Source: Acidobacteriota bacterium
GTDB lineage: Bacteria > Acidobacteriota > Aminicenantia > Aminicenantales > Saccharicenantaceae
Length of the DNA stretch: 64,000 nt
Assembly (NCBI GenBank): GCA_039683095.1
Contig: JBDKSB010000001.1
Span: forward strand, 1 to 64,000
Direction: 5' to 3'
Positions within the stretch are counted from its first letter, which is position 1, and the number at the start of each line of letters is the position of its first letter. Position numbers and translations under genes: made by a program. Positions 3,168-5,271 of this stretch are shown here, piece by piece. Under the pieces are notes generated by a model that ran no database searches, had not been told where the DNA came from, and saw only the letters and a list, made by a program, of their open reading frames with translations.

Positions 3168-3479
3168 TCAGGACGAGGACTTGCCGCACCCGGCCCCGGC
3201 CGTGCCGCAGGACCCGCTGGCGGCCTCGGACTTGGTCTCGGCCGGCGATTCGGCGCCGGCCTTGCGGTCCCTCGCGGTATGCCCGGCGGGGACGGAATCC
3301 TTCTTGGCGTAGTCGGTGATATACCAGCCGCTGCCCTTGAACTGGATGGCCGGCGAGGAGATCCTCTTGGCCACCGGCCCGCCGCACTTGGGGCACTTCT
3401 CGAGGGGCTTATCCTTGGCCTTCTGGAGAACTTCGGTCGTCTCCCGGCACTTCTTGCACTGATATTCGTAGATCGGCAT
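3168..3479 (-). CDS. FmdB-family small zinc-ribbon protein
   Basis: This 103-residue protein starts MPIYEYQCKKC and has CxxC pairs at C8/C11 and C29/C32, which is the FmdB/CxxC_CXXC_SSSS putative regulatory family. The N-terminal 45 residues carry the zinc ribbon. The tail is low-complexity (Ala, Ser, Glu, Gly) with two further cysteines near the end. The family was first noted beside formamidase and amide-degradation genes, but its molecular role is unsettled and none of those genes is here. It has its own promoter (3510-3538) and ends 40 bp before gmhB, so gmhB and rel may share this transcript. Confidence 0.85.
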   Translation of the reverse strand: MPIYEYQCKKCRETTEVLQKAKDKPLEKCPKCGGPVAKRISSPAIQFKGSGWYITDYAKKDSVPAGHTARDRKAGAESPAETKSEAASGSCGTAGAGCGKSSS

Positions 3480-3558: not shown

Positions 3559-4995
3559 CTATTCGTGGAAGACGATCGCCTCGAAGACCGAGAGCTTCGC
3601 CCCGCGCTTCCAGGCGTCGGCCGGCAGGCCGGCCTTGAGCGAGGCCTGGGCCAGGAACGTCTCGCGGTCCCAGCCGTTCTCGACCGGCACCTGGGGCAGG
3701 AGCAGGCCCTTGCGCCCGTCCCTCTCGACGACGACACCGTGGGTGCCGACCTTGACCAGCCCGGGGTCGGCGATCTCCCGGACCGGCGTCAGGACCGAGA
3801 TCTCGACCCGCAGGCGCCCGATCTCGGACGCGGCGACGGGCGGGAAGCGGGGGTCCTCCGTGGCCGCGTAGATCGCGCAGCGGATGACGGCCTGGCCGAG
3901 CGGCATGACGGGCTCGATGAAGCCGATGCAGCCGCGCAGGTCCCCGCTCTTCGTCAGCGTCACGAAGGCGCCGCGCGGCGTCCGGAACTTCTCCCGGCCG
4001 GAGAGGTCGTCGATAGTCGCCCCCCGCTCCAGGAACGCGGCCAGGGAGGCGCGGGCCATTTTCAAGAGCTCGGCCTTTTCGTCCGCGGTCAGCGTGAAGG
4101 CCTCGGGCGCCGCGTGGCCCTGCGTCCGGACCGCCGCGGCCAGGTAGCCGACGACCGGGCCGCCGAACGCAGCCGAGTCCGTCCGGGCCAGCACCTTGAC
4201 CTCGGGCCGGCCGAGCCTGGCCGCGTAGAGAAGAAGGGAGGCGACACCGCCGCCGCCGCACATGATATTCTCGCCCGCCTCGACCCGGCGGATGAGCGTC
4301 TCGGTCTTGCGGCCTTCGAGCAGCGCGGCCGTGGCGGCGTCCGTGGACCGGGCCTGAGCCTCCGGCAGGTAGTGCGACAGGTCCGTCGAGGCGACGACCA
4401 GGACCTTCCGGTCCCGGCAGTTCTTGGCCAGGGCCGAGGCGAGGGCCCTGATGGTCGTCGCCGCCTGCGCGCCCATGACGATGGGGACGATGGCCGCGCC
4501 GGGCAGGACGCGCTGGACGAAGGGCACCTGGACCTCGACCGAGTGCTCTTCGGCGAAGGCCTCCGGCCGGAAGCGGAAGCCCGAGGCCTTGGCGATGGCC
4601 TTGGCCAAGTCCGCGTCGACCCGGGCGGTCCCGAGCGGCGTCTCGAACCCTCCGTCCGGCCAGACCGAGACCCCCTCGAAGGCGAAGCGGTGGGACGGCC
4701 CGATGATGACGACGGTGTCGATGGCCTGGCCGCGGACGAGGGCGTAGGCGGCGGCCGCCGTCCGGCCCGAATACGCGTAGCCGGCGTGAGGCGCGATTAT
4801 CCCGATGATGCGACCGGATGCGGCCGGCCTGGCCGGGGCGGCCGCGGCCAGGTAGCCGTCGATATCGGCGGCCAGCCGGGCCGGGTCGGCCGGGTAGAAC
4901 TGGCCGGCGAACACGGCCGGCCTGAGGCCCTGGGCGAAAGCCGCCGCCGGGGCGAAGACAAGCAGGAGGACGATCGAGCGAAGGGTTCTGGTCAT
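3559..4995 (-). CDS. Exported Memo-AMMECR1 fusion (AmmeMemoRadiSam system B+A domains)
   Basis: The 478-residue protein begins with a signal peptide (MTRTLRSIVLLLVFA, then AAAFAQ), followed by a Memo domain at about 24-290 and an AMMECR1 domain at about 300-478. The Memo part keeps the putative metal-site residues: APHAGYAYSG, GPSHRF, EEHSVEVQVP, STDLSHY and the Cys in ENIMCGGGG. AMMECR1 keeps its signature LRGCIGFIEP. Memo is related to extradiol dioxygenases; the physiological substrate of either domain is not established. The radical-SAM partner of this system is not in the window. The start at 4995 has a Shine-Dalgarno (GGGAGAG); an upstream ATG at 5028 would fall at the predicted transcription start. 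Confidence 0.85.
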   Translation of the reverse strand: MTRTLRSIVLLLVFAPAAAFAQGLRPAVFAGQFYPADPARLAADIDGYLAAAAPARPAASGRIIGIIAPHAGYAYSGRTAAAAYALVRGQAIDTVVIIGPSHRFAFEGVSVWPDGGFETPLGTARVDADLAKAIAKASGFRFRPEAFAEEHSVEVQVPFVQRVLPGAAIVPIVMGAQAATTIRALASALAKNCRDRKVLVVASTDLSHYLPEAQARSTDAATAALLEGRKTETLIRRVEAGENIMCGGGGVASLLLYAARLGRPEVKVLARTDSAAFGGPVVGYLAAAVRTQGHAAPEAFTLTADEKAELLKMARASLAAFLERGATIDDLSGREKFRTPRGAFVTLTKSGDLRGCIGFIEPVMPLGQAVIRCAIYAATEDPRFPPVAASEIGRLRVEISVLTPVREIADPGLVKVGTHGVVVERDGRKGLLLPQVPVENGWDRETFLAQASLKAGLPADAWKRGAKLSVFEAIVFHE

Positions 4996-5136: not shown

Positions 5137-5271
5137 ATGAAAGGCTTCTTCAAGTTCCTGCTGGCTGTGTTGACGCTGGGCCTGGTGTTTTTCCTCGGTC
5201 ATCGTCTCGGACAAGAAAAAGAAAAAGCCAAGATCCCGATCTTCCAGGACGAGCCCGAAGGCCGCGAATAG
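5137..5271 (+). CDS. Small single-span membrane protein, 44 residues
   Basis: The ATG at 5137 has a clear Shine-Dalgarno (GGAAGG) five bases upstream and a promoter just before it. The product begins MKGFFKFLLAVLTLGLVFFL and then turns charged (GHRLGQEKEKAK) and acidic at the end (DEPEGRE). It looks like one N-terminal transmembrane helix with a short hydrophilic tail, or an uncleaved signal anchor. I do not recognise a family. It leads the group that continues into the LolB-like lipoprotein and ispE, so an envelope role is possible but not shown. Confidence 0.65.
   Translation: MKGFFKFLLAVLTLGLVFFLGHRLGQEKEKAKIPIFQDEPEGRE

What the first reader, a model, noticed from the sequence alone, without database searches (positions are those of the whole stretch)
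3559..4995. Memo and AMMECR1 fused and exported
These domains usually form separate cytosolic proteins, often encoded with a radical-SAM enzyme. Here they are one polypeptide with an apparent signal peptide and intact candidate active-site residues. Export would move this little-understood system to the periplasm, where radical-SAM chemistry is unlikely.
Basis: partly seen in the sequence, partly recalled or inferred. Interest (0 to 1): 0.55.

Follow-up and report, generated by a model that had tools for sequence, protein, structure and literature searches.

The report
Exported Memo-AMMECR1 with exported radical-SAM partner
An enzyme trio of unknown function that normally sits inside cells seems to have a second, exported version here, in which even the radical-SAM enzyme carries an export signal, although such chemistry is not expected outside the cytoplasm.

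Summary
The minus-strand gene 4995..3559 encodes one 478-residue protein: a Sec-type signal peptide, a Memo domain and an AMMECR1 domain, with the candidate active-site residues intact.

The genome also has unfused Memo and AMMECR1 genes without signals, and two radical-SAM genes of the partner family TIGR04337. One is cytosolic; the other starts with a twin-arginine (Tat) signal. Among 138 radical-SAM relatives the Tat-signalled ones form one branch (signal called in 79 of 82 members; 2 of 56 outside, both judged false). In 149 genomes of the phylum the fusion and the Tat-type enzyme occur together in 42, singly in 7, neither in 100. They are often neighbours, with DUF362 and a membrane spermidine-synthase-like gene, also in Desulfoferrobacter's phylum and in Bacteroidota. 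The radical-SAM cluster cysteines are intact.

Best reading: the window gene is the Memo-AMMECR1 part of an extracytoplasmic AmmeMemoRadiSam module. Location rests on signals and gene linkage, not on experiment. Substrate, SAM source and electron donor are unknown.

The parts
3559..4995 (-). coding sequence of the exported Memo-AMMECR1 fusion, 478 aa
4933..4995 (-). predicted Sec signal peptide, residues 1-21, cleavage AFA|QG
   Evidence: read from the sequence; by rule in 57 of 63 distinct fusions, 0 of 37 stand-alone AMMECR1, 4 of 37 stand-alone Memo
4141..4914 (-). Memo domain, residues 28-285, with metal-ligand candidates H70, H102, C246
   Evidence: Pfam and NCBIfam; conservation; predicted fold matches MEMO1 structures
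3568..4065 (-). AMMECR1 domain, residues 311-476, with invariant R354 and C356 (LRGCIG motif)
   Evidence: Pfam and NCBIfam; conservation; fold matches 1zq7, 1vaj, 1wsc

Best explanation
The window gene is the Memo+AMMECR1 component of a second, extracytoplasmic copy of the AmmeMemoRadiSam system. The fusion leaves by Sec and would take up its metal (His, His, Cys site) outside. Its radical-SAM partner, on another contig of this genome (C10), leaves by Tat, the route for folded, cofactor-loaded proteins. Outside they would do together what the unfused proteins do in the cytosol: the radical-SAM enzyme starts a radical reaction, and the Memo metal site and the AMMECR1 domain act on its substrate or product. 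SHOWN: the fusion, conserved residues, signal-like N-termini, one Tat-signalled radical-SAM branch, co-occurrence, gene linkage, TatC in the genome. INFERRED: actual export, partnership, catalysis outside. UNKNOWN: substrate, SAM source, electron donor. Guesses: periplasmic cytochromes as donor (some of these enzymes carry their own CxxCH motif); few SAM molecules needed if the reaction is activase-like or recycles SAM, or a role in SAM supply for the linked membrane spermidine-synthase-like protein.
For: Own genome: unfused Memo and AMMECR1 without signals, cytosolic radical-SAM copy and Tat-type copy MNRRGFLRGAAGAGLALGAG; TatC. Tree: 79 Tat-called and 3 unclear proteins on one side of a branch with SH-aLRT 97, none without; outside 2 of 56 called, both judged false. 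Curated model TIGR01409 in 46 of 78 Tat-type N-termini, own copy over the cut-off, 0 of 53 controls. Cluster cysteines in 81 of 81 Tat-called; fold of PFL-activating enzyme. Co-occurrence 42 / 2 / 5 / 100 in 149 genomes. Neighbourhood: in 102 Tat-type loci (with overlaps) fusion 37, DUF362 41, spermidine-synthase-like 42; in 57 loci with other copies 1, 0, 1, the one being a mislabelled fragment L124. CxxCH before the domain in 11 of 81.
Against: No localisation data. Signals were called by home-made rules, and the Tat-type start codons were chosen with the RR motif in view, so the RR conservation is partly by construction. The own Tat-type protein is 0.1 bit under the TIGR01409 cut-off when scanned whole and over it as its first 50 residues. 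Five genomes have the fusion without a Tat-type enzyme found (G007, G021, G046, G091, G102); in G046 and G102 the fusion has a signal by rule, and the radical-SAM copy read in G102 has none (L122). Fusions L022, L024, L029 have no signal. The linked DUF362 has no Tat signal in the own genome. Topology of the spermidine-synthase-like protein is inconclusive. No known periplasmic SAM supply.
Confidence: 0.65

Rival explanations
1. Both proteins are exported, but the Tat-type radical-SAM enzyme does its chemistry in the cytosol, where SAM and ferredoxin are, and is exported afterwards, in a complex with its product or as a pre-charged single-turnover enzyme.
For: SAM and low-potential electrons are cytosolic by general knowledge. 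Tat proofreads folded proteins and can carry partners. The DUF362 neighbour lacks a Tat signal in the own genome, and the nearest other families by profile are activases that act once per target.
Against: The fusion uses a Sec-type signal, so it would not be folded with the enzyme inside. The CxxCH subset (11 of 81) points to a redox role on the outside.
Confidence: 0.2
2. The fusion is exported for a job of its own, such as metal binding or dioxygenase-like redox chemistry in the periplasm, and the Tat-type radical-SAM enzyme is an unrelated exported protein that shares its distribution.
For: In the own genome they lie on different contigs; so they do in 10 of 13 same-class-or-closer genomes with a Tat-type enzyme. 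Five genomes have the fusion without a Tat-type enzyme found.
Against: Adjacent genes in 37 of 102 loci over several phyla, co-occurrence 42 of 49 genomes that have either, and both belong to one recognised system.
Confidence: 0.1
3. The N-termini are not export signals, only hydrophobic segments that hold cytosolic proteins at the membrane, or wrong start codons.
For: No localisation data; start codons are inferred.
Against: Tat and Sec rules or models separate these sets from their paralogues, and the twin-arginine pattern recurs in N-termini that are otherwise 13-90% identical to the own copy.
Confidence: 0.05

Closest known systems
AmmeMemoRadiSam system, NCBIfam TIGR04335 / TIGR04336 / TIGR04337 (called 'Memo-Ammecr1 systems' in PMC7159879, passages read, citing Burroughs et al. 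2019, which I could not read)
   Same: All three components are present and exceed the family cut-offs in this genome; cluster cysteines and Memo/AMMECR1 key residues kept.
   Different: Memo and AMMECR1 are one polypeptide with a Sec-type signal; the radical-SAM enzyme of this branch has a Tat signal; DUF362 and a membrane spermidine-synthase-like gene are linked. The genome holds a signal-free set as well.
Human MEMO1 (PDB 7kq8, 7l5c, 3bcz)
   Same: Fold of the Memo half (Foldseek E about 1e-20) and the His, His, Cys metal site.
   Different: MEMO1 is cytosolic and has no AMMECR1 domain in the same chain.
Pyruvate formate-lyase activating enzyme (PDB 3cb8)
   Same: Closest solved fold of the Tat-type radical-SAM enzyme (E 1.2e-13, 16% identity); activases are its nearest other NCBIfam families.
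   Different: No Tat signal and a cytosolic location (recalled); the N-terminal four-cysteine segment and C-terminal CxxC pairs belong to TIGR04337 proteins.

Membership tests
AmmeMemoRadiSam system | Memo and AMMECR1 components matching TIGR04336 and TIGR04335 | tested here: met
   251 bits (cut-off 26) and 171 bits (cut-off 99)
AmmeMemoRadiSam system | a TIGR04337 radical-SAM enzyme in the same genome | tested here: met
   two matches over the cut-off of 220 bits (378 and 338); neither is next to the window gene
AmmeMemoRadiSam system | the three parts act in one pathway | not testable with these tools
   only co-occurrence and linkage
Sec-exported proteins (window fusion) | basic n-region, hydrophobic h-region, AxA cleavage site | tested here: met
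   sequence and a home-made rule with controls; no SignalP, no experiment
Tat substrates (own C10 radical-SAM enzyme) | twin-arginine signal: RR-x-F-L, hydrophobic region, TatC in the genome | tested here: met
   sequence; TIGR01409 18.7 bits over cut-off 16.7 on the first 50 aa but 16.6 on the whole protein; Pfam TAT_signal 18.2, under its cut-off 22.7; TatC E 2e-69
Tat substrates (own C10 radical-SAM enzyme) | actual Tat-dependent export and cleavage | not testable with these tools
   needs experiment
Radical SAM superfamily | CxxxCxxC cluster motif and partial barrel fold | tested here: met
   cysteines in 81 of 81 Tat-called proteins; Pfam Radical_SAM 64.5 bits; fold match to 3cb8
c-type cytochrome-like segment | CxxCH motif | tested here: not met
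   absent from the own copy; present before the domain in 11 of 81 Tat-called proteins and in L265; the one control hit, L141, is part of the domain's own cysteines. Haem binding not tested

The most novel reading that the evidence does not exclude
Radical-SAM catalysis takes place outside the cytoplasm in bacteria of at least three phyla: a Tat-exported radical-SAM enzyme, in some species with its own c-type haem as electron entry, works with an exported Memo-AMMECR1 protein. This would require that S-adenosylmethionine is supplied to, or carried into, the periplasm.
Probability: 0.45. Interest if true: 0.92.

Novelty: new variant of a known kind. Interest (0 to 1): 0.72.

Why it matters
Memo and AMMECR1 occur from archaea to humans without an agreed function, and radical-SAM enzymes are regarded as cytosolic (general knowledge). 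An exported version of the whole set narrows what the reaction can be and can be deleted while the cytosolic set stays. If the radical-SAM enzyme works outside, SAM and low-potential electrons must reach the periplasm, which would be new biology. If it works inside and is then exported, it is an unusual maturation route. Linked DUF362 and membrane spermidine-synthase-like genes become testable parts of one pathway.

Tried and rejected
Selenocysteine: one search reported an internal TGA in both radical-SAM copies; reading the frames shows the natural stop at the end of the match. Rejected.

That the fusion is peculiar to this genome: rejected, 47 of 149 genomes of the phylum have it.

That Tat calls are scattered artefacts: rejected by the tree. 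The two calls outside the branch are L062 (own C3 copy, motif in the 5' extension of the frame) and L048 (AMMECR1-radical-SAM frame). Inside the branch L177 is cut by a contig edge, L202 has a short N-terminus, L089 lacks a usable start near the motif. A first, cruder count (41 of 65 against 0 of 25) is superseded.

Topology of the membrane spermidine-synthase-like protein by charge bias was inconsistent, so none is claimed. In one search one of six queries (a short peptide upstream of the window gene) was translated out of frame; its hits are not used. In one search the DUF362 rule gave 16 of 33; by eye L119 is false and L092 and L064 were missed, so 17 of 33.

Rows dropped or limits: twelve loci that duplicate longer ones and radical-SAM matches weaker than 1e-60; identical domains. 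The 102 loci include overlapping fetches of one gene, and flanks are shorter around many control copies. The Memo list is cut at about 1e-38, so weaker fusions may be missing. Tat-type genomes were assigned by score (at least 352 bits, with G071 removed because its enzyme, L051, has no signal); the N-termini of G064 and G136 were not fetched and that of G121 is unclear.

Full report
THE OBSERVATION. The open frame 4995..3559 on the minus strand encodes 478 residues. Pfam places Memo at 28-285 and AMMECR1 at 311-476; NCBIfam names the halves AmmeMemoRadiSam proteins B and A. The model of the mature protein (mean pLDDT 94.2, pTM 0.64) matches MEMO1 and the archaeal AMMECR1 structures; the pTM leaves the arrangement of the two domains uncertain. 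The first 21 residues read as a Sec signal.

ACTIVE SITES. In human MEMO1, H49, H81 and C244 hold iron or copper (PMC11081632, passages). The matching window residues are H70, H102 and C246; the two histidines follow from the alignment, C246 from its place in the family motif. They are conserved in 63, 63 and 62 of 63 fusions, and AMMECR1 R354 and C356 in 68 of 68. One position varies: S452 of the window is Cys in 51 of 68 fusions and in 28 of 37 stand-alone AMMECR1 proteins.

THE REST OF THE SYSTEM IN THIS GENOME. A second, unfused Memo without signal lies on C2, and a third, divergent one with a signal-like N-terminus on C1. A stand-alone AMMECR1 without signal lies on C12. Two TIGR04337 radical-SAM genes exceed the family cut-off. 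The C3 copy starts at the domain; the C10 copy starts MNRRGFLRGAAGAGLALGAG. The genome encodes TatC.

TAT SIGNAL, SYSTEMATICALLY. Radical-SAM relatives came from the window's phylum, from 12 genomes behind other loci and from the phylum of Desulfoferrobacter (Thermodesulfobacteriota). Of 138 distinct proteins 81 carry a Tat-like N-terminus by rule. On a maximum-likelihood tree built without the signal (quick search, LG+G4, with long-branch warnings) one branch with SH-aLRT 97 has on one side 79 of these, 3 unclear proteins and none without; the other 56 include 2 calls that I judge false. The curated model TIGR01409 matches 46 of 78 Tat-type N-termini (own copy 18.7 bits, cut-off 16.7) and none of 53 controls. 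Pfam's TAT_signal matches 34 of 78, the own copy under its cut-off. Scanned whole, the own protein is 0.1 bit under the TIGR01409 cut-off. Start codons were chosen with the RR motif in view, so the RR conservation seen is partly by construction.

STILL A RADICAL-SAM ENZYME. Cluster cysteines and the N-terminal four-cysteine segment are conserved in 81 of 81 Tat-called proteins. All 78 aligned Tat-type proteins match TIGR04337. The predicted structure (pLDDT 93.4, pTM 0.87) matches pyruvate formate-lyase activating enzyme (3cb8, E 1.2e-13). In 11 of 81 Tat-called proteins a CxxCH motif stands before the domain; the single hit among 57 others, L141, belongs to the domain's own cysteines. L265, outside that set, has one too. 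The own copy has none.

FUSION AND TAT-TYPE ENZYME TRAVEL TOGETHER. Tallied by hand, 47 of 149 genomes have both domains in one frame and 44 have a Tat-type enzyme: both 42, Tat-type only 2, fusion only 5, neither 100 (Fisher p 6e-29, not corrected for ancestry). The six further genomes with close fusion relatives that reached (G154-G157, G159, G160) all have a Tat-type enzyme, 64-87% identical. Around Tat-type genes one search finds the fusion in 37 of 102 loci, DUF362 in 41 and the membrane spermidine-synthase-like gene in 42 (the loci overlap, and many are short). Around other copies it finds them in 1, 0 and 1 of 57; that one locus, L124, is a fragment of a Tat-type gene labelled wrongly. 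In 10 of 13 same-class-or-closer genomes with a Tat-type enzyme the fusion lies on another contig, and in the own genome the Tat-type gene sits between DUF362 and the spermidine-synthase-like gene; so it does in L145-L150, six of six. By eye 17 of 33 distinct DUF362 neighbours have Tat signals; the own one and its 12 nearest relatives read (L057, L058, L095, L102, L111, L119, L145-L150) do not, while L071 of the same class does.

OTHER PHYLA. In one search, 193 of 198 genomes have some match to the own enzyme; of the 30 best loci fetched, 28 have a Tat-like start and the other two are L177 and L202. Desulfoferrobacter suflitae DRH4, a named strain, has a signal-bearing fusion directly followed by a Tat-type enzyme, and a second fusion without signal (L022). 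In the phylum of a Bacteroidetes MAG 64 of 198 genomes match; of the 12 loci fetched or already held, L152, L265, L266 and L267 have Tat-like starts, with fusion, AMMECR1 or spermidine-synthase-like genes beside them. A Proteobacteria-labelled MAG (L030) has fusion, Tat-type enzyme and spermidine-synthase-like gene in a row.

EXPORT OF THE FUSION. By rule 57 of 63 distinct fusions have a Sec-like signal against 0 of 37 stand-alone AMMECR1 and 4 of 37 stand-alone Memo (L003, L202, L221, L259; L221 looks false). Of the six misses, L089 and L065 have a hydrophobic segment outside the rule's limits, L128 is weak, and L022, L024 and L029 have none.

AGAINST. Five genomes have the fusion without a Tat-type enzyme found: G007, G021, G046, G091, G102. 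G091 is fragmentary here, and G021 has an unread partial match some 3 kb from its fusion. In G046 and G102 the fusion has a signal by rule; the radical-SAM copies read there (L138, L122) have none.

HOW IT PROBABLY WORKS. I commit to an extracytoplasmic AmmeMemoRadiSam module: the metal-binding fusion goes out by Sec, the cluster-loaded radical-SAM enzyme by Tat. Whether radicals are made outside is the open step (about 0.45); the alternative is action inside followed by export. The SAM source is the weakest point. An activase-like or SAM-recycling reaction would need few SAM molecules, and the linked spermidine-synthase-like membrane protein is a candidate, but its topology was inconclusive.

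WHAT IS IN PRINT. Searches of the open full-text library: AMMECR1 + Memo + radical SAM, 1 paper; AmmeMemoRadiSam, 5, listing only; MEMO1 + AMMECR1 + bacteria, 0; radical SAM + twin-arginine + periplasm, 10, of which I saw passages of PMC10924467 (an unrelated neighbouring gene) and only the listing of the rest; radical SAM + Tat signal, 3, listing, apart from that paper; DUF362 + radical SAM, 0; MEMO1 + AMMECR1, 2, listing; AMMECR1 + radical SAM, 1; dioxygenase, AMMECR1, LigB, Memo (any three), 14, with passages of PMC11081632 read; phrases such as 'periplasmic radical SAM', only PMC7159879, for 'Memo-Ammecr1'. PMC7159879 (passages) cites Burroughs et al. 2019 for Memo-Ammecr1 systems; that paper was not held. 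In these searches I found no description of a Tat-exported radical-SAM enzyme or an exported Memo-AMMECR1 system, but a key paper is unread.

VERDICT. New variant of a known kind; interest 0.72, more if catalysis outside the cytoplasm is shown.

Noticed in passing
L010:7442-8494 (own genome, contig C1, about 332,500): A third, divergent Memo-like protein, unfused, with a signal-like N-terminus; by eye it keeps His, His and Cys at the metal-site motifs.
   Followed up: partly
L061:7480-9624 (own genome, contig C10): Membrane protein with a spermidine-synthase domain (PF01564; NF037959 'fused MFS/spermidine synthase' over its cut-off) next to the Tat-type radical-SAM gene. Substrate and topology unknown.
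   Followed up: partly
L061:11746-12702 (own genome, contig C10): DUF6599 protein with a signal-like N-terminus, divergent from the DUF362 gene; similar genes beside Tat-type loci L057, L058, L095, L119, L145-L148.
   Followed up: no
L185, L189, L191, L193, L194 (phylum of Desulfoferrobacter): Near some Tat-type genes lies a second, distant radical-SAM-like gene that also starts with a twin-arginine pattern.
   Followed up: no
L048 (G027, same phylum) and L029 (Planctomycetota MAG): Other fusions of the system: AMMECR1 with the radical-SAM domain in one frame (L048), and AMMECR1 before Memo in one frame beside a radical-SAM gene fragment (L029).
   Followed up: no
window 3168-3479 minus: A small protein with paired cysteines (FmdB-like zinc ribbon; name recalled) follows the fusion; a similar gene is near the fusion in 14 of 17 related loci examined.
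   Followed up: partly
window 5137-5271 plus: Divergent from the fusion, a 44-residue frame MKGFFKFLLAVLTLGLVFFLGHRLGQEKEK... that reads as a single-pass membrane peptide (by eye).
   Followed up: no
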